This document shows, one piece after another, positions 4,529 to 31,616 of a stretch of 36,549 nt of DNA. Position 1 is the stretch's first letter. Each line of letters opens with the position of its first letter. The notes under the pieces were generated by a model. That model was not told the origin of the DNA, made no database searches, and saw only the letters and a list, made by a program, of their open reading frames with translations. Origin of the DNA: a virus; the IMG/VR virus record IMGVR_UViG_3300050821_023953, positions 1-36,549 of that record. One strand, 5' to 3'. The translations under genes were made by a program, and so were the position numbers.

Positions 4529-5087
4529 CTGACACCTCCGGGGAAGGGACTGAAGGGCTGACCGGACGGTAGATCGCGGTGACGTTTGTGCGATACGTGG
4601 GATCCTGGAGGTTGCCGAAACAGACGCCGTAGCGGTGCATAGCGTGGATGAACATTCGGCCGCTGTGCATGTAGAACAGACCGCAGTGGTGAGGGACTCG
4701 GACGATGTTGAAGCAAATTAGATCTCCCGGAGCGATAGCATCGAGTAGTTGCGACAGACCAAAGGTCGGAGAGTCGTAGTGCAGCTTCTGAAAACTCGGA
4801 TGCGAATCCAGCCAATCAGTCACCAGCGATCGCTGGAGATGACGGCCGCCGTCCATCGTGTAGGCCGGGAATCCGTAGTCAGCGAACAGGCCGCATTCCT
4901 GATAGATGCGCGCGGCCAGGTGGACGCAGTCCACGCCGACGCCACGCATAGCTGCGTGAGGCACGAATTTGGTGTGGACCCATGTGAGCGCGATGGCGCG
5001 GAACTTTTCCAGACGGTCGGGATCGGAAAAGAAGGGGACAGACAAAGTGGATGACAAAGTGGATGACAAAGTGTTGGGCTCGTTCAC
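4521..5087 (-). CDS. NlpC/P60-family tail peptidase
   Basis: 188 residues. Expected to cleave peptidoglycan cross-links at the tail tip during DNA entry or tail assembly. Candidate catalytic Cys54 is in GVDCVHLA, followed by a helix as in the NlpC/P60 fold; His134 is in HHCGLFY, matching the family H-x-G; the third residue may be His148 (FIHAMH). Size matches GTA gp14-type peptidases. It starts at GTG (5087) with a strong Shine-Dalgarno AGGGAGGT, and the GTG overlaps the TGA of the preceding gene. Residues 6-16 (TLSSTLSSTLS) are encoded by the in-frame GACAAAGTG triple repeat, so the first 17 residues are probably a dispensable addition. Confidence 0.88.
   Translation of the reverse strand: MNEPNTLSSTLSSTLSVPFFSDPDRLEKFRAIALTWVHTKFVPHAAMRGVGVDCVHLAARIYQECGLFADYGFPAYTMDGGRHLQRSLVTDWLDSHPSFQKLHYDSPTFGLSQLLDAIAPGDLICFNIVRVPHHCGLFYMHSGRMFIHAMHRYGVCFGNLQDPTYRTNVTAIYRPVSPSVPSPEVSDV
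5041..5073. repeat. GACAAAGTG triple repeat, copy 1
   Basis: Three GACAAAGTG units at 5041-5049, 5053-5061, 5065-5073 with GAT spacers. It lies in frame at the start of the NlpC/P60 gene and encodes TLSSTLSSTLS on the minus strand. Confidence 0.9.
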
Positions 5088-6550: not shown

Positions 6551-6975
6551 TTCCAGATTAGGACGTAGGCGTTGACGTTGTTCAGCGCGGACACATCCAG
6601 GTAATTGGCGGTTTGGGCCTGGACAGAGCAGCCCTGGCAAATCGGCTTGTAAGTCGCGTTGCCGAACGGAGTGGTGAAAGTGATGCGATAGTTCGGGCCG
6701 ATGAACGTCACGGAAGCGACGTTCGTTTGATCTCCGCCGCCGCCGATCAAAGTGGGAGCGCCGCTGCCTGTGTTGAAACCGGCTATCACCTGCGGAGCGA
6801 CTTGCTGGATGGCCGTGACGGCGTTGTTGATCAGCGTTTGGGCTGTGTTAAACGAATTGTTGAGCTGCGAGATGTAATAAAACATCGTGCCGATCAGCTC
6901 CAAGTATTGCGCCTGGTTGGGGACGTCGCCGGTCTGGAAATACGACTGCAGGATGTTTTGGGTTTGGGGGATCAT
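6547..6975 (-). CDS. Tail-region protein of unknown function
   Basis: 142 residues. Residues 1-60 are helical and Gln/Asn rich (NQAQYLELIGTMFYYISQLN); the remainder is beta-rich with PNYRITFTTPFGNATYKP and two cysteines (ICQGCS). The ATG overlaps the TGA of the upstream small gene and its own TGA overlaps the next ATG, so it is translationally coupled on both sides. The short N-terminal helix plus beta domain could be a trimeric tail-tip or fibre piece, but I recognise no family. Confidence 0.65.
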   Translation of the reverse strand: MIPQTQNILQSYFQTGDVPNQAQYLELIGTMFYYISQLNNSFNTAQTLINNAVTAIQQVAPQVIAGFNTGSGAPTLIGGGGDQTNVASVTFIGPNYRITFTTPFGNATYKPICQGCSVQAQTANYLDVSALNNVNAYVLIWK

Positions 6976-7346
6976 GGCAGCGCGGGAGCGGGGAGCGGGG
7001 AGCTTGGAGCCTGAGCGGAAGCGACGCAGAGAACGCCCGACAGACGATTGTGGCGGCGGAAACCGCCCGCGGCGTTCAGGAGGATTTCACGGCCGCATTC
7101 AGAACAGAGCCGTCTTTTGTGCGTGTCCATTTTTTGTTCCTCATTTGCGGTGGAAATAATGGACGTTTCTGCGCCCGAGGCGGGCGCGCTCCGCTCGCGA
7201 CTGGCATAAAGCCGTTGCCATAGCGCTTGATCGCGGATTCGCAGGAAGTTTTCGTGCGGGTCGTTTTGCGGGTGGGAGACGTAAACGTAGCCTTCGGGCA
7301 AGACGCGCGTGCCGGCGTTTTGGATGTCAGAGTATTCGGATTTCAT
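6972..7346 (-). CDS. Small composite protein with Cys motif; repeat-derived parts
   Basis: 124 residues. Residues 1-47 (PEGYVYVSHPQNDPHENFLRIRDQALWQRLY) look like a genuine small phage domain. Residues about 50-62 are encoded by a GC-rich palindromic repeat (GCGCCCGAGGCGGGCGCGC). An internal ATG at about 7131 (MDTHKRRLCSECG) follows GAGGAAC and opens a mini-domain with CSECGREI and a later Cys, possibly a zinc ribbon. The last residues (SSPLPAPALP) come from a second repeat of GGGAGCG units. Its stop overlaps the next start. It may be two short genes joined in frame by a repeat insertion; function unknown. Confidence 0.5.
   Translation of the reverse strand: MKSEYSDIQNAGTRVLPEGYVYVSHPQNDPHENFLRIRDQALWQRLYASRERSAPASGAETSIISTANEEQKMDTHKRRLCSECGREILLNAAGGFRRHNRLSGVLCVASAQAPSSPLPAPALP
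6981..7012. repeat. GGGAGCG-type repeat
   Basis: Units of GGGAGCGGGGAGC encode the C-terminus of the 124-residue tail-region protein. A related copy in opposite orientation lies at 31008-31035. Confidence 0.65.
7171..7190. repeat. GC palindrome repeat GCGCCCGAGGCGGGCGCGC, copy 1
   Basis: Encodes part of SAPASGAE in the 124-residue protein. Near-identical copies at 15711-15735 and 24748-24768. Confidence 0.75.
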
Positions 7347-7348
7347 GG

Positions 7349-7381
7349 GACAAAGTGATGGACAAAGTGGGAGACAAAGTG
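7349..7381. repeat. GACAAAGTG triple repeat, copy 2
   Basis: Units at 7349, 7361, 7373 with ATG and GGA spacers. It exactly fills the gap between the distal tail gene stop (7387) and the next start (7346). Confidence 0.9.
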
Positions 7382-7386
7382 TGCGT

Positions 7387-8043
7387 TCATCCTACGATGT
7401 TGGTTGTGCCGACAGTCATCCAGCCGATGCCTGCTCCGGAATGGTTGACGTTGCCGCCGAGTTGCGCGGCGTCGCGGCTGGTGAGTTCCTGGAGTGTGAG
7501 GCTGACTTCGCCGTGCCAGTTGGTAATGAGCGACACGTCCTTCACGGACAGTTTGCCAAACAGCAGCGGAAAGACATACAGACCGTTCGCGACCGGGTAA
7601 GTGCGGCTGACGGCCGCGCCGAGCGTAAGCGTCGCGCCGCCGCCCGTGACGTTCGTAAGCTGGCGCACGTCCCAATTCATCGCGTCGTCCTGCAGGAAAA
7701 TGTAATCACCAATCGCCCACGGCCAGGTTGCGTCGGCGAGGTTGACGGTGACGTTTGTCACGTCGGCCGAGATCGGCGAACCGCGGCCATGGTAAGGCGT
7801 GCAGGCGTTGCCGGATTTGAGCGCGGCGCGAATGCGATCATCGAGTTCGCTTTGTTCCTGCAGCGTGCGCGGCGCGACGGTCCAGGTGAGCGAGATGCGC
7901 GCATTCTGGCGGGTTGCGGCGCGGGCTTCGTTGCCGAGGATGCTTTCGGTGATACCGGTGGACCAGGTGCGCTGCCAGGTCGGCGGCGTCTGCCAGTCCG
8001 CGCGATGCGCGAACAGGACGGAACCGTTGACGAGATCGACCAT
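7387..8043 (-). CDS. Probable distal tail protein (GTA gp12 position)
   Basis: 218 residues. The N-terminus DLVNGSVLFAHRADWQTPPTWQRTWSTGI describes a tail protein of the type located between the tape measure and BR0599 genes, where gene transfer agents encode the distal tail (DUF2460) protein. Later parts are beta-rich (DYIFLQDDAMNWDVRQLTNV) and the C-terminus contains SLTLQELT. I do not see the standard DUF2460 N-terminus, so the family call is positional. It starts two bases after the stop of the small upstream gene and is followed by an intergenic gap filled exactly by a GACAAAGTG triple repeat. Confidence 0.6.
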   Translation of the reverse strand: MVDLVNGSVLFAHRADWQTPPTWQRTWSTGITESILGNEARAATRQNARISLTWTVAPRTLQEQSELDDRIRAALKSGNACTPYHGRGSPISADVTNVTVNLADATWPWAIGDYIFLQDDAMNWDVRQLTNVTGGGATLTLGAAVSRTYPVANGLYVFPLLFGKLSVKDVSLITNWHGEVSLTLQELTSRDAAQLGGNVNHSGAGIGWMTVGTTNIVG

Positions 8044-8045
8044 AA

Positions 8046-8291
8046 TCAGGATTTCACATTTGAGATTTGAGATTTGAAATCGGGAGGGGAATGGCGCTCG
8101 ATGGCGGCGCGGGACCAGAAGAGGACCTCTTCGAGCTTGCGAATGGCCAGACGCTTTTCGGCCGACTCGGGCAGGATATGATCAAGCTTGTCGGCCAGTT
8201 CCTGGCATTGCTTGCGCGCGTCTTCTGTGGCGCGGTTTGTCTCCGGCAACGGCGGACGGTAAATGAAACGGGCTAAAAGCTCGGTTCTCAT
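8046..8291 (-). CDS. Acb2/Tad1 hairpin-type small protein, candidate cyclic-nucleotide sponge
   Basis: 81 residues. Residues about 20-67 form a helical hairpin: RKQCQELADKLDHILPES, then AEKRLAIRKLEEVLFW with SRAAIERH. This P-x-S-x-E-K-x-L-A-x-x-K-L-E-E-x-x-x-W-x-x-A-A-I-x-R pattern is what I know from the Acb2/Tad1 hairpin (former DUF7681) family. Characterised Acb2 proteins bind cyclic nucleotide signals and block CBASS; some also bind Thoeris signals. The last 12 residues (from FKSQ to the end) are encoded by an in-frame interspersed repeat, so the ancestral protein probably ended near RHSPP. It lies inside the tail operon between tape measure and distal tail genes, an unusual place for an anti-defence gene. 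Activity is inferred from the motif only. Confidence 0.6.
   Translation of the reverse strand: MRTELLARFIYRPPLPETNRATEDARKQCQELADKLDHILPESAEKRLAIRKLEEVLFWSRAAIERHSPPDFKSQISNVKS
8049..8081. repeat. TTTGAGA-type interspersed repeat
   Basis: Tandem ATTTGAGATTTGAGATTTG units encode the last residues of the Acb2-like protein (KSQISNVKS). Confidence 0.75.
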
Positions 8292-8293
8292 TC

Positions 8294-8326
8294 GACAAAG
8301 TGCAGGACAAAGTGGAAGACAAAGTG
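8294..8326. repeat. GACAAAGTG triple repeat, copy 3
   Basis: Units at 8294, 8306, 8318 with CAG and GAA spacers. It fills the gap between the tape measure stop and the Acb2-like start. Confidence 0.9.
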
Positions 8327-8331
8327 TGGGA

Positions 8332-10992
8332 TCATGTTGGCACTCCGATCTTGTAGCGGTTTTTGCGGGCGATCCTGACGACGTGGGCTTCGCCTTCGGC
8401 GCTGGACAGGAATTGCTTGATCTCGGAATGGTCGCGAAGCATGGCGATGGACACTTGATGGCCTTCGACGTTTATGCCGGTCGAGGTAGCGCCTGAAGGA
8501 CGAACGCCGTAGCCGGCCGCCGCGCCGGCCGCGCTGGGAGCGTTGGGGAAACGGCGAGCGTTCAAGTCGCGCATGAAGTTCGCGCCGTAGTGCGCGAGCG
8601 CTTCGTTGCGCATGACGAACTCGGGACCGGCTTCGCCCATCATTGTCAGCGTCGGACCGGTGATCAAACCGCCTTGGGCCGCGAATGCCAGACCCTGCCC
8701 TTCCGCCAGCGCCGCGGCCATCAGCGCCGGCGCTTGTGCGGACGCTTCGCCTTCGGTCGCGATGGTTGCGAGCGTGGCAGGCGGGGCCCAGATCGCTGAC
8801 TCTTCGGAAGCCAGCGCGGCGTTCGCGGCCGCTGATGCCTGTCCGGCCGTCTGGCCGGCTACGAGCATTAGCAACTGTTGCGCGACCCAAGTTGTTCCGA
8901 TCTTCACGATTGCCTGGACGACGGAACTAATGATCGAACCGGCAATGTTTCGTAGAGCCTGAGACCACGTCTCGGTTTTGTTGATCACGCCGCTCAGGTT
9001 CGTGCTGACGGAATTGAAGGCGTTCGAAAAGATGGATTGGAACTGGTTTCCAATCTCGTTGAGCGTGTTGAACTGGTTGCGGAGGTTGATCAGCGCCGTG
9101 CTGAACTGTCCGCTCAACGTGAGGCTGGCTTGCGCGCTTTCGAGCTTCTGCGCCAACGCGACCTGCTGGCCCTGGAGCGCGATGTATTCTTTCTGCGCGT
9201 TGAGCCGGGCTTCGTCGTTCAATCTCGGATCGGTCGAACGCTGGCGCAACACGTCCAATTGCTTTTGATCCAGGGCAAGTTCCTGCTGCATCAAAGGAAT
9301 GAGCAGTTTCGTTTTCTCGACGTCGGTCAGGTCGGGATTGCCCGTGATCGCGGACTGTTGGTTCTTGAGCTTGGCCAGGGCGATGTTGTTCGCTTCGTCG
9401 GCTTCCTTGCTGGTCACTTCCAAACGCTTGGCGGCGTAAATCTGGCTGACCTTGAGCTTTTCCTCTTCGCGCTTTTGCTGGTCGGGGATTTCCTCATCCA
9501 GCTTTTTCTTGAGCTTGGCTTCCTCTTCGTTGAGCAGCGCGACTTTGCTCTCGGTGGCTTCGGCGAACGCTTTGTTGACTTCCTCGATGAGCTGGCGCGC
9601 GGCGTCGCTGAGGCCGGCTGGCTTGTTGCCGGCCGGCGATTCACCAGGGACTGAAGGAACGCCAGCGACTGAAGAGCCGGAGCCGAGATTGAAAATCTTC
9701 GCAAGCGCGCCAGCGACTGATTGATCATTCGAGAACAACTGCTTGGCGGCGTCGGAAGCGCGCTGGAATGCGCTGGTGAAGAAATCGGCAATGTGGGCGG
9801 CCGCGGAATTGGAATCGGTCGCCAGGCTCGTGATGTCCTTTTTCAGGCCGGCGACCATTTCCTTTGTGTGCGACCAGGCGTCCCCGACGTGGCCGGTCGC
9901 GGCTTCGGCCATGATTTGGGCGACCTTGCTTTGAGCGGTCGCAAGATCGATGAGCGCGCGGATCGCGTTGACGACTTTGCGTTCGAAGTCGTCCATTAGG
10001 TTGCCGACCAGGTTCAGGCCGTCAGCCAGAATCCCAAACCCCAATTCGGAAACGGTTCCCAAGTCTTCGATTTGCTGCTTAACGATCAGCACGGCCGCCG
10101 CCATGAACTGGAACACGCCGACCAGCGCAGTGCCGATGACCAGATGGCCTTGCTCGCTATTCGCTACGTTCTTGAACCAATCGACCAGATCGCGGAGCGC
10201 CGGCAGCAACGCCGCGGCGACTTCGTTCCAGAGCTGCTCGACGGACTGCCGCAGCTTGACCAGTTCCATGTCGAACTGGCGCGCGTTCTCTGCGGCTTCC
10301 TGCGTGACGCCGTTCGATTCACCCAGCGCGCCCGAGCCCTGGCGTAGCACTTCGAGAATTTCGCGGCCTTGAGGTCCGCGCATGCCGACCAGGTCGCGGA
10401 CCATCGCCGCGCCTCGTTGCGGGTCCATTTCCTTGAGCTGGTCCATCACGGCGCGTAGGACACTCTCGGTGTCCTTTAACGCGCCGTTGGACTGAAAGAT
10501 GCCGATGCCCCAATCGCGAAACACTTTGGCCGCGTCGCCGCCGCGCCGCGCCGCTTCGCTGATGCGGACGTTCAGCAGGTAAAGCGATTGCTCCATCGCT
10601 TCCAACGGCACACGGTTTTGTTCGCCGAGTTCCTTGAGCGCGTTCAGCGTGCGCAACGAGATCCCGATTGCTTCGGCCGCGCGGCCCATTTCGTCGGCGC
10701 GATTGATGGCTTCGTTTACGCTCTCGACGTATTGGAGGACCATCTCCTTGAGGGTTTCCCAGGCTTTCTCAACCGTGAACAACGCGGCGACAGTTGCGCC
10801 CAGGCCAGTGACAAATTCCTCGGCTTGCGTCGCGTCCACGAGCCAGCCGAAAATTCCGCCTTCCTCTTTCTGTTCGTCGGATTTGGCTTTGGTCTCGTCG
10901 ATCTTGCCGTTGACCTTGTCAAAGAAGTCCTGGACTTTGGACATTGCGTCCTGCGTCTCGGCATCGAACGTGATTGTGATTCCGTCGCCCAT
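8332..10992 (-). CDS. Tail tape measure protein
   Basis: 886 residues from the ATG at 10992 (MGDGITITFDAE); the longer open frame starts in a GACAAAGTG repeat and is rejected. Long helical and coiled-coil stretches dominate, including a charged region at roughly 500-600. Hydrophobic segments occur near residue 300 (ALVGVFQFMAAAVLIV) and near 710 (SIISSVVQAIVKIGTTWV). The C-terminus has the tape-measure signature GGLITGPTLTMMGEAGPEFV. Length sets tail length and suggests a tail of roughly 130 nm by the usual 0.15 nm per residue rule. It follows the chaperone genes and precedes the distal tail gene, as in siphophages. Confidence 0.9.
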   Translation of the reverse strand: MGDGITITFDAETQDAMSKVQDFFDKVNGKIDETKAKSDEQKEEGGIFGWLVDATQAEEFVTGLGATVAALFTVEKAWETLKEMVLQYVESVNEAINRADEMGRAAEAIGISLRTLNALKELGEQNRVPLEAMEQSLYLLNVRISEAARRGGDAAKVFRDWGIGIFQSNGALKDTESVLRAVMDQLKEMDPQRGAAMVRDLVGMRGPQGREILEVLRQGSGALGESNGVTQEAAENARQFDMELVKLRQSVEQLWNEVAAALLPALRDLVDWFKNVANSEQGHLVIGTALVGVFQFMAAAVLIVKQQIEDLGTVSELGFGILADGLNLVGNLMDDFERKVVNAIRALIDLATAQSKVAQIMAEAATGHVGDAWSHTKEMVAGLKKDITSLATDSNSAAAHIADFFTSAFQRASDAAKQLFSNDQSVAGALAKIFNLGSGSSVAGVPSVPGESPAGNKPAGLSDAARQLIEEVNKAFAEATESKVALLNEEEAKLKKKLDEEIPDQQKREEEKLKVSQIYAAKRLEVTSKEADEANNIALAKLKNQQSAITGNPDLTDVEKTKLLIPLMQQELALDQKQLDVLRQRSTDPRLNDEARLNAQKEYIALQGQQVALAQKLESAQASLTLSGQFSTALINLRNQFNTLNEIGNQFQSIFSNAFNSVSTNLSGVINKTETWSQALRNIAGSIISSVVQAIVKIGTTWVAQQLLMLVAGQTAGQASAAANAALASEESAIWAPPATLATIATEGEASAQAPALMAAALAEGQGLAFAAQGGLITGPTLTMMGEAGPEFVMRNEALAHYGANFMRDLNARRFPNAPSAAGAAAGYGVRPSGATSTGINVEGHQVSIAMLRDHSEIKQFLSSAEGEAHVVRIARKNRYKIGVPT

Positions 10993-10997
10993 ATCAG

Positions 10998-11030
10998 GAC
11001 AAAGTGGAAGACAAAGTGGAAGACAAAGTG
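10998..11030. repeat. GACAAAGTG triple repeat, copy 4
   Basis: Units at 10998, 11010, 11022 with GAA spacers. It lies between the chaperone second-frame stop (11036) and the tape measure ATG (10992). Confidence 0.9.
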
Positions 11031-11035
11031 TGCAT

Positions 11036-11143
11036 TTACATCTGGGGTTGACCGCGCGGCGGGCGGCCGTCGCCATACATGGCTTTCAGGCGCTCGGTGG
11101 CGGCGTGGGCGAACAGGTCGAATTGTCGAAGAGTGTAACGCAT
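11036..11143 (-). CDS. Second-frame product of the tail chaperone pair (gpGT-like extension)
   Basis: From the ATG at 11143, which shares its A with the upstream TAA (TAATG), the frame gives 35 residues beginning MRYTLRQFDLFAHAATERLK. Good coding character continues upstream of this ATG in the same frame to about 11215 (FADTAAAIDFLLSQGHSLDD), almost every codon ending in C, while the annotated upstream gene has poor third positions there. So this is either the C-terminal extension reached by a -1 frameshift, as in lambda gpG/gpGT, or a coupled small gene with a lost start. It sits directly before the tape measure gene, where that arrangement is expected. Confidence 0.6.
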   Translation of the reverse strand: MRYTLRQFDLFAHAATERLKAMYGDGRPPRGQPQM

Positions 11144-13290: not shown

Positions 13291-13323
13291 GACAAAGTGC
13301 AGGACAAAGTGGGAGACAAAGTG
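13291..13323. repeat. GACAAAGTG triple repeat, copy 5
   Basis: Units at 13291, 13303, 13315 with CAG and GGA spacers, between the tail terminator stop and the A/C leader of the first major tail gene. Confidence 0.9.
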
Positions 13324-13871: not shown

Positions 13872-14507
13872 TCAATCGTCGTCGTCGTCGCCGAAGCGAG
13901 GACCGCGGGTGAAGCGGACGTGACGCGTGCCGCCGTATGCGCCCTTCGCGGGCGAGAGCTGAGGATCGGGGATCGTCTTCTCGATCAGGTCCGGGAACTT
14001 GCCGTCGCGGATCGCGGTTAGTTCGGCGATGGCATCCTTGTATTGGTCAACGATGTTGCTGGCCCGCGGCCCCATCTGGCCGTAAAGGTCCCAAAGCACG
14101 ATCGGGCGAACGAGACGCTTGAAGCGCGAATCGGACGTGTAGTTGATGAACAGCGCGGTCGGATTCGCGATTGCGCCATTGACAACCACGGTGATTGAAC
14201 CGGCAGCGGCATTCAGCGTGTAATCCGCTGGAGTGTTGAAGACCTGGCCGGAACCTGATTGGACGGAAACGGACGAGAGGTCCTGGCGTTGAGCGAAATA
14301 GGTTTGGCCCTGGACCGATGCCGGCGTGAGCGGTTCCAATTGGATCACTTCGCTGATTTGGTAGCGCAGCGTGTAATCGTTCACCTTCGCGACGGCCGCG
14401 CGGATCGCGACGGCGATGGGATCAGCGTTCTGCAAATTGGCCAGGCGCGACGTAATGTCCGCAATGTCCTGATCGCTGATGTTTAGATCGTCGTCGGTGA
14501 AGGTCAT
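13872..14507 (-). CDS. Head completion / connector protein, Mu gp36 (DUF1320)-like
   Basis: 211 residues from the ATG at 14507 (MTFTDDDLNISDQD); the upstream in-frame part lies over a repeat. The N-terminus (ADITSRLANLQNADPIAVAIRAA) and the segment LVRPIVLWDLYGQ ... YKDAIAELTAIRDGKFPDL fit the DUF1320 pattern of a helical connector ending in Y-x-D-A-I-x-x-L-x-x-I-x-x-GK. Residues about 66-124 are a beta insertion shared with the first major tail protein. The tail end is acidic (GDDDDD). The ATG overlaps the TGA of the cold-shock gene. Gene order after the major capsid gene matches Mu. Confidence 0.7.
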   Translation of the reverse strand: MTFTDDDLNISDQDIADITSRLANLQNADPIAVAIRAAVAKVNDYTLRYQISEVIQLEPLTPASVQGQTYFAQRQDLSSVSVQSGSGQVFNTPADYTLNAAAGSITVVVNGAIANPTALFINYTSDSRFKRLVRPIVLWDLYGQMGPRASNIVDQYKDAIAELTAIRDGKFPDLIEKTIPDPQLSPAKGAYGGTRHVRFTRGPRFGDDDDD

Positions 14508-14782
14508 TCCAGTGCGGAGTTCGGAGTGCGGAGTGCAGAATTCCGAGACGGGCAACGGGTATTAACGCCGGGCTTGTCCGCGCCGACGCGCGCGACGCGT
14601 TGGGCGCAAAGGCCGCGTTCGCCGTGCGTGACGTCGAAGCTGACGCGTTCGCCCTGCTGAAGCGATCGGCGGCCGCGGCCGGGAAGCTCGGAGTAATGGA
14701 CGAACACGTCCTTGTCGCCAGTGTCGGGCGTGATGAACCCGTAACCTTTCTTATCGTCGAACCATTTAACTTTGCCGGTCAT
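14504..14782 (-). CDS. Cold-shock domain protein
   Basis: 92 residues from the ATG at 14782 (MTGKVKWFDDKKGYGFI). RNP1 is KGYGFI (residues 12-17) and RNP2 is VFVHY (27-31), with the usual length of about 65 residues for a single OB-fold nucleic-acid chaperone. It binds single-stranded RNA or DNA. The final 25 residues contain NSALRTPNSALE, read from a repeat, and this extension makes the gene end in an ATGA overlap with the next start. It is unusual to find a cold-shock gene between capsid and tail genes; it may assist late mRNA translation. Confidence 0.9.
   Translation of the reverse strand: MTGKVKWFDDKKGYGFITPDTGDKDVFVHYSELPGRGRRSLQQGERVSFDVTHGERGLCAQRVARVGADKPGVNTRCPSRNSALRTPNSALE
14509..14550. 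repeat. TGCGGAGTTCGGAG-type repeat
   Basis: Units of GTGCGGAGT encode the C-terminus of the cold-shock protein (NSALRTPNSAL) and end at the gp36-like start. Confidence 0.75.
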
Positions 14783-14790
14783 CGCGGGAA

Positions 14791-14818
14791 TGGGGTGTTG
14801 GAGTATTGGAGTGTTGGG
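14791..14818. repeat. TGGAGTATTGGAGTG-type repeat, copy 1
   Basis: Fills the gap upstream of the cold-shock start. Copies at 15071-15112 and 26188-26226. Confidence 0.8.
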
Positions 14819-14873
14819 CTTGCCCGGCGCGGCCATCGGTGTGCCGCGCCAGGCTGTGACCCGAAGCGACCTA

Positions 14874-15065
14874 CTACGCTCCGGAAGTTGGTTCTTTTGG
14901 TTCTTCCTTCTTGCCGGTGGGCTTCGAAGGCGCGGACTCGCGATGTTCAAAGGCGTGCGTGCCGTTGATCAGCAGCTTGCCGTGATGGTCCTGGACTTCG
15001 TGGACTTCGTCCTTCTTGAGGATCTTCCCGTTGAAGATCACATCCTTTGCGATTTTGATTTTCAT
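14874..15065 (-). CDS. Small head-region protein of unknown function
   Basis: 63 residues from MKIKIAKDVIFNGKILKKDE. The pattern KIKIAKDVIFNGKILKKDEV resembles small SH3-like or beta-barrel phage proteins found near capsid genes, but I cannot assign a family. The C-terminus is Lys/Glu/Pro rich (KPTGKKEEPKEP), likely disordered. It is flanked on both sides by repeats of TGGAGT-type units, which occupy the upstream gap and part of the downstream gap. It lies in the Mu gp35 neighbourhood. Confidence 0.6.
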   Translation of the reverse strand: MKIKIAKDVIFNGKILKKDEVHEVQDHHGKLLINGTHAFEHRESAPSKPTGKKEEPKEPTSGA

Positions 15066-19192: not shown

Positions 19193-21159
19193 CTCGCGCC
19201 TCCGCGTCTCATGTATGCGCCGACCGCTCCATTGATGGCCGCGGCGCCCATTGCTTTCTCTAAAGCCTGAGCGAGATGCGTCCGATCCAGTTTGTTGAAC
19301 AGTTCGGGAAAATGTTTCTGCGCGCGTTCGAGCGTCGCGATGAACTGGCGGTCGGAGAGATCGCCGTTTTTTGCAGCGGCGATTAGTTCGCGGAAGTATG
19401 GCTTCACGCCGGAGAGCCAGCGCGCCTGAACGCCGGTCAGGTTTTCCATCACGTTGTTTGTGAGCTTGTCCATTGCCGCGGCCGCGGCGGCAGTGGACGT
19501 GAACCGGCCGGACGCGCTGTCGCTCTCGGGATTCGGAACCGTGGGCTTGGGTTCGCTCGGCGGTTTGTCATCGGGCGTGAGCGCCGCGGCCGGCCCGATA
19601 AAGACGGGTTCGCCAGGGGAAGGCACGGGAATGTCGAGCTGCTCGTAAAGATGCTGCTCGGGAACTGGCAAACCCATGCCAACCACGATTTGATATTTCT
19701 GCGCGACGGCGACCTGGTCTTTCGTTTCCTTGGTGGACGGCACGGCAATGGGACATTCGTCGTCGTTGCCGAAGTTCATCCGGCAGCAAGCCGGCAGGAG
19801 TTGATCGTTGAGGACGTCGGCCGTGCGCTGGCCAACCGACTGGACGCGTTCGTTCTCGCCTTCCTTGTGGATCTTGCCGAGCGCCTGGCTGCCGCGCTGG
19901 CCCTGCGAGGTCGTGAGCGTCTGGCCCAGGATGATGATGTCAACGATCTCGTCGCAGGAATCGAGCAACACTTTTTGCGGGTTCTCACGAGCGTTGCCTT
20001 CGCCCTTCTCGAAATTGATTTTCGTTCCGTCCGGGAACACGCCGTAGCCGGCGCTGCCCATTCGACGCATCATGTCGTCGATCAAATCGAGCAAACCCTG
20101 TCGCGCCGGATCGTAAGTAGCCCAGCGCAATGGCGAGCCGAAGATTTGCGCGAAATTGATGAACCATTCCCAGGCGAAGTTTTGCGCGGCCCAATAGAAC
20201 GCCAGGATTCGAAGCATCGCGCCGCTGAGCGGATGCCCGGACTTCTGTTTGAAAATCGAGATGATGAATTTGTTCAGCGGGAACTCGGTCCACATTCCGG
20301 ACTGTTCGGAGTAGTCGGCATTCGAGAACGCGACCTCTTGCGCGAAGAGCATCAACTCGTCTTGCTGCATCTGCGTCGCGCCATAGCCGTAACCGGGATA
20401 GCCGTAGTAACGCGGATGCACCCAGCGCGTCGAACGCGGCGTCCAAAGCTGGATCGGGGTGATCGTGCGCGAATCGGTCGCGGTATTCTGTTTCGGGTTG
20501 CTGCCCGATTTCGATTTCGGGCTGAGATCGAGTTGCAGCGTGCGCAACTCCCAATTGATTTCGAGCACGCTGATTCCCTTGCCGACTGCGTCCATCACAT
20601 CCCGGAGCGTGTTGTCGAAATTATTTTCGTTCTTCTTGACGTCCGGCTTCATTGTCCAGATGAACGCATCAAGTATTCGGCAGCGGCGCTCGGCTTCAGG
20701 ACTCGGCGTTTGTCCGCGCGGGGCGAAGGGTTGCAGGTTCCAATCGAGACCGACCACGCCGTCTTTGAGCTTGTTGAGGTTGGTCGAGAGACGCGGCCAG
20801 GTCTGTTCCATCAGGTCCATTGCCAGCCACGACGCGACCAGGTTGCCGGCCATCATGCCGCGGAAGATGTTTTCCAGGATTCGCGGCGTGTAATAGTGGA
20901 CGTAGGACGCCATCCACCGGTCGCGAGCCGAAGGGAGGATGATGGTCCGAACGGCCTGTTCTTGAGCAGGCCCACTTTGTCCCACACTTTGTCCTGCACT
21001 TTGTCGATTCCCGTTTCCGGATCGGGACGACAAAGTGGGTGACAAAGTGGGTGACAAAGTGTTTTGGGGAGCCGCGGCCTGGACGCGGCCGGGCTGCCAA
21101 TGCTCCGCGCCGATCCGCGGGGCGCGCCAGGATGGGATGACGGTGCTACGCAAGGGCAC
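19189..21159 (-). CDS. Portal protein (DUF935, Mu gp29-like)
   Basis: 656 residues by the GTG at 21159; the start is uncertain because GGGAGG abuts the GTG and the first 70 residues are repeat-rich. Residues about 33-62 are encoded by an inverted pair of GACAAAGTG triple repeats. The conserved DUF935 portion begins near RDRWMASYVHYYTPR: KDGVVGLDWNLQPF, KGISVLEINWE, FPLNKFIISIFKQKSGHPL, FAWEWFINFAQIFGSPLRW, IIILGQTLTTSQGQRGSQALGK. Forms the head vertex channel for DNA. No MuF gene follows it; gpG comes next. Confidence 0.85.
   Translation of the reverse strand: MPLRSTVIPSWRAPRIGAEHWQPGRVQAAAPQNTLSPTLSPTLSSRSGNGNRQSAGQSVGQSGPAQEQAVRTIILPSARDRWMASYVHYYTPRILENIFRGMMAGNLVASWLAMDLMEQTWPRLSTNLNKLKDGVVGLDWNLQPFAPRGQTPSPEAERRCRILDAFIWTMKPDVKKNENNFDNTLRDVMDAVGKGISVLEINWELRTLQLDLSPKSKSGSNPKQNTATDSRTITPIQLWTPRSTRWVHPRYYGYPGYGYGATQMQQDELMLFAQEVAFSNADYSEQSGMWTEFPLNKFIISIFKQKSGHPLSGAMLRILAFYWAAQNFAWEWFINFAQIFGSPLRWATYDPARQGLLDLIDDMMRRMGSAGYGVFPDGTKINFEKGEGNARENPQKVLLDSCDEIVDIIILGQTLTTSQGQRGSQALGKIHKEGENERVQSVGQRTADVLNDQLLPACCRMNFGNDDECPIAVPSTKETKDQVAVAQKYQIVVGMGLPVPEQHLYEQLDIPVPSPGEPVFIGPAAALTPDDKPPSEPKPTVPNPESDSASGRFTSTAAAAAAMDKLTNNVMENLTGVQARWLSGVKPYFRELIAAAKNGDLSDRQFIATLERAQKHFPELFNKLDRTHLAQALEKAMGAAAINGAVGAYMRRGGAR
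20973..21061. repeat. Inverted pair of GACAAAGTG triple repeats, copies 6 and 7
   Basis: CACTTTGTC units at 20973, 20985, 20997 face GACAAAGTG units at 21029, 21041, 21053, with a 23-bp spacer holding its own short palindrome (ATTCCCG/CGGGA). The arms could form a 33-bp stem. It is read in frame inside the portal N-terminus. Confidence 0.9.
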
Positions 21160-30978: not shown

Positions 30979-31616
30979 TCGATTCCTGCGGTTTCGCGTT
31001 GGCGCCGCGGCTCCCGGCTCCCTGCTCCCCGCTTCTTGAGCGTGTAAGTCAGGTTGCGCAGTTGGGACAGCGTGAGATCGGCGGGGTCGGTCACTTTGTA
31101 TTTGTCACGGAGCAGGGCCGACAAAGTGGGAGACAAAGTGGATGACAAAGTGCGGAGGAAGGCCAGATGCCGGCGACGTTCGCCGGGATGGTCCGGGAGC
31201 TTTTCGTCGCACTCGATGCCGAGGCGTTTGGCTTCGGCGATTCGGCGGCTGACGGTGTCGAACTTTTCGTAAGCCAGGCGGTCATGGACGGCGCGGAGGT
31301 CCTCGGGATTGATCAGGAGCGCGAAGGCGTTCAGGACGCGGTCGAGGTCCTCGTTGTCGAACTGCGTGAGAGACTTTAGCGTTCCGAGCGCGAACAAGTA
31401 GCAGCCCTTCCGCAGCCGGTCCGCGGCCGGGAAGCGGAGCAGCGACGGCATGTCCGCGTAAGCCCAGACGCGTTCGTGCCACTGCGAGCGGTCCGGGCCT
31501 ACCGCGCCCGGCACGAGCAACCCGCCTTCCATCCGCCAGTTGTTCACGCCGCACACACGGCCCCAGCCGTGCTCGTTATTCCAATGCAGGGAGATTTGGG
31601 GTTGGGTTAGGCTCAT
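30966..31616 (-). CDS. Protein of unknown function with two repeat-derived segments
   Basis: 216 residues from the ATG at 31616 (MSLTQPQISLHWNNEHG). Residues 1-150 appear genuine, with LRKGCYLFALGTLKSLTQFDNEDLDRV. Residues about 156-166 (LSSTLSPTLSA) come from an in-frame GACAAAGTG triple repeat, then ALLRDKYKVTDPADLTLSQLRNLTY resumes, and the C-terminus (GAGSREP) comes from another repeat. The insertion keeps the frame because 33 bp is a multiple of 3. Function unknown. Confidence 0.55.
   Translation of the reverse strand: MSLTQPQISLHWNNEHGWGRVCGVNNWRMEGGLLVPGAVGPDRSQWHERVWAYADMPSLLRFPAADRLRKGCYLFALGTLKSLTQFDNEDLDRVLNAFALLINPEDLRAVHDRLAYEKFDTVSRRIAEAKRLGIECDEKLPDHPGERRRHLAFLRTLSSTLSPTLSALLRDKYKVTDPADLTLSQLRNLTYTLKKRGAGSREPRRQRETAGIECPF
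31008..31035. repeat. GGGAGCG-type repeat, reverse orientation
   Basis: GGCTCCCGGCTCCCTGCTCC encodes GAGSREP at the end of the 216-residue protein. Confidence 0.65.
31120..31152. repeat. GACAAAGTG triple repeat, copy 8
   Basis: Units at 31120, 31132, 31144 with GGA and GAT spacers, in frame inside the 216-residue unknown protein. Confidence 0.9.

What the first reader, a model, noticed from the sequence alone, without database searches (positions are those of the whole stretch)
8046..8291. Candidate Acb2/Tad1-type nucleotide sponge inside the tail operon
The helical hairpin with LPES-x-EKRLAIRKLEEVLFW and AAIERH matches my knowledge of the Acb2/Tad1 hairpin family that binds cyclic nucleotides and blocks CBASS. 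Here it would be expressed late, together with tail proteins, which is unexpected for an anti-defence gene unless the protein is packaged or acts late when CBASS fires.
Basis: partly seen in the sequence, partly recalled or inferred. Interest (0 to 1): 0.75.

Follow-up and report, generated by a model that had tools for sequence, protein, structure and literature searches.

The report
Acb2-type anti-defence protein in phage
A phage of a poorly studied group of bacteria (Verrucomicrobiota) carries, slipped between two tail genes, a small protein of the Acb2 family that probably soaks up the alarm molecules of the bacterial CBASS immune system; this extends a known family to a new phage lineage rather than revealing a new kind of system.

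Summary
The ORF is real and is a true member of the Acb2/Tad1 hairpin family: PF24729 46.7 bits against a cut-off of 27, and phrog_1454 E=1.7e-19. The proven sponges T4 Vs.4 and PaP2 gp26 ring in the same model. The predicted fold is Acb2-like (short N-terminal helix, then a two-helix hairpin, no Tad1 beta domain). It sits between the tape-measure gene and a DUF2460-like tail gene. A 64%-identical copy lies at the same place in a prophage of another verrucomicrobial genome (dN/dS about 0.2), while four related prophages have these two tail genes without acb2. It is therefore an accessory gene carried in the tail operon, not a tail part. A rare repeat links the phage to one verrucomicrobial lineage. 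That genome and the one with the prophage both encode CBASS operons (Cap15, NucC, CapV-type effectors), so a CBASS signal sponge is the best reading (about 0.78; binding not tested). Late-module placement is not unusual in the family. Unusual are changes at five near-invariant positions, including R at the position of T4 T68 (T68M weakens binding), which may mean altered ligand preference. A new member of a known kind, possibly a variant.

The parts
8046..8291 (-). acb2-like gene, 81 aa
   Evidence: PF24729 46.7 bits, cut-off 27; phrog_1454 1.7e-19; 64% identical syntenic copy; dN 0.30, dS 1.5
8094..8261 (-). Acb2/Tad1 hairpin domain, residues 11-66
   Evidence: PF24729 positions 2-58 of 58; predicted helices 16-39 and 44-67
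8259..8261 (-). Y11 codon, aligned with T4 Acb2 Y8 and PaP2 Acb2 Y11 (cyclic dinucleotide contact)
   Evidence: alignment A1; Y8A abolishes function (PMC12657218, PMC12657230)
8139..8141 (-). R51 codon, aligned with T4 Acb2 T68; T in 51 of 55 IMG/VR relatives
   Evidence: T68M lowers T4 Acb2 binding (PMC12657230)
8294..8326 (-). (CACTTTGTC NNN)x3 array filling the gap between the tape-measure stop and the acb2 start; one of 8 in the window
8050..8077 (.). 7-bp GATTTGA tandem repeat that encodes most of the C-terminal tail of the ORF
8332..11076 (-). tape-measure protein gene, directly upstream of acb2 (true start probably downstream of the array at 10998-11030)
   Evidence: tape-measure PHROGs, e.g. 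phrog_8125 9.5e-24
7387..8043 (-). tail gene directly downstream (weakly DUF2460-like; phrog_1082 tail assembly)
   Evidence: phrog_1082 1.2e-13, DUF2460 below cut-off

Best explanation
The gene encodes an Acb2-type cyclic-oligonucleotide sponge. Shown here: it belongs to the PF24729 hairpin family, has the Acb2 layout, keeps the base-contacting tyrosine (Y11) and a basic residue at the K26 position (R26), is kept under purifying selection, and is an accessory gene placed between two tail genes. Inferred: it assembles into a homo-oligomer (hexamer in known Acb2), binds cyclic di- and/or trinucleotides made by host CD-NTases when the phage grows or is induced, and so keeps CBASS effectors such as Cap15, NucC or the CapV-type phospholipase from killing the cell before release. 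Being in the tail operon would give high copy number late in infection, which suits a stoichiometric sponge; transcription was not measured.
For: PF24729 46.7 bits, cut-off 27; the proven sponges T4 Vs.4 and PaP2 gp26 ring in the same model with 70 and 65 bits. Profile A3 finds the solved 'Acb2 homolog 43' at 2e-9 and Tad1 at 1.6e-4. Model pLDDT 83.7 with helices 2-9, 16-39, 44-67; top Foldseek rows are T4 Vs.4 with cGAMP, prob 0.85. Same gene at the same place in G105; empty sites in four related prophages. Genomes linked to the phage carry CBASS: G105 has a CapV-type phospholipase + CD-NTase and E2 + CD-NTase; G001 has CD-NTase + Cap15 and NucC + CD-NTase + E2. The CD-NTase model PDLC00801 rings in only 3 of 196 genomes of the order, and G001 and G105 are two of them.
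Against: No binding data. Five family positions that are near-invariant in 55 IMG/VR relatives are changed (H12R, R44A, T51R, N61R, A65E); T51 is also T in T4, PaP2 and Tad1, and T68M weakens T4 Acb2. The Foldseek E-value is 1.3, because a short helical hairpin is not distinctive. The host link is indirect, the CD-NTase model was chosen after seeing G105, and metagenome bins can be impure.
Confidence: 0.78

Rival explanations
1. It is a small tail or tail-assembly protein that reuses the hairpin fold; its place between tape measure and distal tail genes reflects a structural job.
For: Lies inside the tail operon in two phages whose tail proteins are 50-75% identical; keeps pace with its neighbours in divergence.
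Against: Four related prophages of the same order have the tape-measure gene next to the DUF2460-like gene without it: three with the two genes abutting or overlapping, one with about 130 bp of non-acb2 sequence; an A3 profile finds no relative elsewhere in those regions. Family relatives lie in many non-tail places.
Confidence: 0.08
2. It is a decaying or inactive sponge: the changed pocket positions mean binding is lost.
For: T51R at the position of T4 T68, plus four other near-invariant positions changed; repeat sequence stands where the syntenic homologue has a C-terminal extension of about 60 residues.
Against: The G105 homologue shares R12, R61 and E65, the first 21 residues are 20/21 identical, and dN/dS is about 0.2. 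H12, R44, N61 and A65 are not conserved in proven T4 Acb2 either.
Confidence: 0.09
3. It is a Tad1-type anti-Thoeris protein that binds gcADPR.
For: Same Pfam hairpin family; profile matches Tad1 chains at 1.6e-4.
Against: Only ten residues precede the hairpin and the model has no strand, whereas Tad1 has an N-terminal four-strand beta sheet (PMC12043709).
Confidence: 0.03

Closest known systems
Acb2 of phage T4 (Vs.4) and Pseudomonas phage PaP2 (gp26)
   Same: Same Pfam hairpin family; short N-terminal helix plus two long helices; Tyr at the base-stacking position; basic residue at K26
   Different: 16-19% overall identity; shorter loop between the helices; R instead of T at T4 T68; E instead of F at T4 F82; lies in a tail operon, while vs.4 lies in a T4 block with regB and denV and PaP2 gp26 lies on the replication-gene strand
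Actinophage and other IMG/VR proteins matching the window protein (e.g. Mycobacterium prophage prophi91-3 gp62; StellaBean gp101, annotated 'cyclic nucleotide sequestering protein')
   Same: Closest sequence group outside Verrucomicrobiota, about 35-52% identity over the hairpin; some also beside late genes
   Different: They keep H12, R44, T51, N61, A65, which the window protein and its G105 homologue have lost
Tad1 (anti-Thoeris)
   Same: Homologous helical hairpin
   Different: No N-terminal beta domain in the window protein
Acb2 homolog 43 (PDB 9ptq)
   Same: Best solved sequence match, 2e-9 with profile A3
   Different: Single-sequence match not significant (E 0.39); the N-terminal segment with Y11 is not covered by the match

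Membership tests
Acb2/Tad1 hairpin family (PF24729) | Profile score above the curated cut-off over the whole domain | tested here: met
   46.7 bits against 27, positions 2-58 of 58; positive controls T4 and PaP2 70 and 65 bits
[quoted passage not shown]
   Helices 2-9, 16-39, 44-67, pLDDT 95-98 in the hairpin core; description of the Acb2 protomer in PMC10419184
Acb2 | Base-contacting Tyr (T4 Y8, PaP2 Y11) and basic residue at the PaP2 K26 position | tested here: met
   Y11 and R26 (conservative) in alignment A1; the role of K26 is from own knowledge of the primary papers
Acb2 | Thr at the T4 T68 position (conserved in most members; not shown to be required in all, so not treated as defining on its own) | tested here: not met
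   R51 in the window protein, L in G105; T in 51 of 55 relatives. T68M lowers T4 affinity (PMC12657230)
Acb2 | Homo-hexamer with dinucleotide and trinucleotide pockets | not testable with these tools
   Only single-chain prediction available
Acb2 | Sequesters cyclic oligonucleotides and protects phage from CBASS | not testable with these tools
   Needs purified protein and plaque assays; linked genomes do encode CBASS
Tad1 | N-terminal beta-sheet domain before the hairpin | tested here: not met
   Hairpin starts at residue 11, no strands in the model

The most novel reading that the evidence does not exclude
The verrucomicrobial phage branch is an Acb2 subfamily with a rebuilt pocket (R12, A/P44, R/L51, R61, E65) whose ligand differs from those known for Acb2, fitted to the signals of the CD-NTases (PDLC00801 clade with Cap15 or CapV-type effectors) in its hosts.
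Probability: 0.3. Interest if true: 0.6.

Novelty: new member of a known kind. Interest (0 to 1): 0.38.

Why it matters
It brings a known anti-CBASS sponge family to phages of Verrucomicrobiota. It offers a testable pair (sponge subfamily and a CD-NTase clade in the presumed host lineage), and it shows acb2 as an accessory insertion in a tail operon with natural empty sites. The changed pocket positions give a direct way to ask how ligand choice evolves in this family.

Tried and rejected
Single-protein and two-sequence pattern scans of IMG/VR found no close relative; neighbour genes gave only distant ones. Alignment A1 with T4 and PaP2 was too diverse to scan with. A phylum-wide scan with A2 found nothing, an empty answer that shows nothing by itself. 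The SMODS Pfam model missed the CBASS of G001; the PADLOC cyclase models found it. VIA-align rows are all below Z 8, as expected for a helical hairpin, so they do not discriminate. Structural tail role rejected on the empty sites. Two searches were of no use: a Cas12f/TnpB family check in the window and a PDB search with an Acb2-like string recalled from memory, which is not used as evidence.

Full report
Observation. Its stop is followed 2 bp later by the start of the next tail gene (8043), and 40 bp separate its ATG from the stop of the tape-measure gene (8332). It is not a chance ORF: it scores 46.7 bits against PF24729 Acb2_Tad1_hairpin (cut-off 27) and 1.7e-19 against phrog_1454. tblastn finds relatives in 343 phage records, and the IMG/VR scan with alignment A2 confirmed 415 encoding stretches, of which the best 80 were kept. 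As a check of the model, T4 Vs.4 and PaP2 gp26, both proven sponges, ring with 70 and 65 bits.

Fold. With 56 sequences AlphaFold2 gives pLDDT 83.7 (95-98 in the core), with a short N-terminal helix (2-9) and two long helices (16-39, 44-67). This is the published Acb2 protomer (PMC10419184). Foldseek ranks T4 Vs.4 with cGAMP first (prob 0.85) but with a weak E-value of 1.3, as expected for a small helical hairpin; the second look by VIA-align does not discriminate. A profile from A3 finds the solved Acb2 homolog 43 at 2e-9 and Tad1 at 1.6e-4 by sequence.

Place and history. The window is a Mu-like phage (MuB-like ATPase; Gam-like protein) with a siphophage-type late block. A search of 196 genomes of one verrucomicrobial order found one other acb2 over the cut-off, in G105. 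It lies in a tail operon of the same order: tape measure, an extra 81-aa ORF, acb2, DUF2460-like gene, and four further tail genes, with 50-75% identity to the window's. Host-like genes follow on the same contig (read by eye), so this looks like a prophage. acb2 itself is 64% identical over 69 aa, and its dN/dS (0.30 over 1.52) is like that of its neighbours (dS is near saturation). Related tail proteins occur in 12 of the 196 genomes. In the four other prophages where both flanking genes can be seen, acb2 is absent: in G184, G015 and G140 the tape-measure stop and the next start abut, lie 3 bp apart or overlap, and in G052 about 130 bp without an acb2 relative lie between. So acb2 is an accessory gene at a fixed place, most simply older than the split of window and G105, and not a needed tail part.

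Is late placement strange? Among known Acb2 genes, T4 vs.4 lies in the regB-denV block and PaP2 gp26 on the strand of the replication genes. But close relatives lie between lysin B and holin (prophi91-3), right after the portal gene (Schomber), and beside endolysin, portal and head-tail adaptor genes in IMG/VR contigs. The late position is therefore real but not exceptional, and timing was not measured.

Host and CBASS. The gap before acb2 is filled by an array of three CACTTTGTC units with 3-bp spacers. The window holds eight such arrays, where shuffles give 0.01 matches. Among about 85,000 bacterial and archaeal species genomes, the three-unit array occurs in one verrucomicrobial MAG (PSRM01, 'Amazon FNV 2010') in 30 stretches and in three other records once each; no IMG/VR contig searched has it. 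The two-unit pattern occurs 134 times in that MAG (G001) and never in reversed form. Tetranucleotide usage of the window fits G001 and G105 (r 0.87 and 0.89), though one other genome fits as well. This points to G001's lineage as host, by inference. G001 encodes a CD-NTase next to a Cap15 effector, and NucC + CD-NTase + E2 with a second CD-NTase. G105 encodes a CapV-type phospholipase + CD-NTase and, nearby, E2 + CD-NTase. The CD-NTase model PDLC00801 rings in only three of 196 genomes of the order, G001, G105 and G171. The model was picked after G105 had been seen, so only the G001 hit counts as a test (2 of the 195 other genomes ring, so about 1 in 100 by chance).

Pocket. Y11 aligns with the base-contacting Tyr of T4 (Y8) and PaP2 (Y11), and R26 with PaP2 K26 (Y8A kills function, PMC12657218, PMC12657230). 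Against 55 relatives, five near-invariant positions are changed: H12R, R44A, T51R, N61R, A65E. The G105 homologue shares R12, R61 and E65 and also departs at 44 and 51. The scan pattern covered columns 53-61 and so inflates conservation there, though it allowed R at 61. T4 Acb2 also lacks H12, R44, N61 and A65, so only the loss of T51 departs from both proven members aligned here; T4 T68M lowers binding (PMC12657230). The T4 F82 that stacks on the ligand bases (PMC12657218) aligns with E65 here and with A in PaP2 and most relatives. The careful reading is a working sponge whose ligand choice may differ; a dead sponge is less likely given the constraint.

Verdict. A new member of the Acb2 family, carried as an accessory gene in the tail operon of a Mu-like phage of Verrucomicrobiota, most likely acting as a CBASS signal sponge. 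Family and synteny are shown; oligomer, ligand, timing and anti-CBASS effect are inferred.

Noticed in passing
5041-5073, 7349-7381, 8294-8326, 10998-11030, 13291-13323, 20973-21005 and 21029-21061 (inverted pair), 31120-31152: Eight arrays of exactly three CACTTTGTC units with 3-bp spacers, mostly at gene junctions just before starts of minus-strand genes. The core is perfect in all 24 copies, the spacers vary. Absent from IMG/VR contigs searched and nearly confined to one verrucomicrobial MAG (134 two-unit matches), which suggests a protein-binding site or a lineage-specific genome-wide element.
   Followed up: partly
6972-7346: A second ORF with no PHROG match sits between the DUF2460-like gene and the next tail gene, also right after one of the arrays, and is absent from the G105 operon: perhaps another accessory insertion.
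   Followed up: partly
L087:2162-2407: In the G105 prophage an 81-aa ORF without Pfam or PHROG match lies directly before acb2, overlapping it by 4 bp; a candidate partner or further anti-defence gene.
   Followed up: partly
L173:2736-6125: G001 CBASS locus with two DncV-like CD-NTase genes around one E2 gene, plus NucC; a tandem of two cyclases in one operon looks unusual.
   Followed up: no
14504-14950: A cold-shock-protein gene (phrog_729) inside the head-tail block.
   Followed up: no
1-1701: 566-aa ORF at the end of the late block with an alpha/beta-hydrolase-like stretch (by eye); the G105 prophage has a GDSL-like protein (L087:8809-10830, below cut-off) with a very similar N-terminus at the same place: perhaps exchangeable esterase domains behind a shared N-terminal part, as in tail-tip enzymes.
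   Followed up: no
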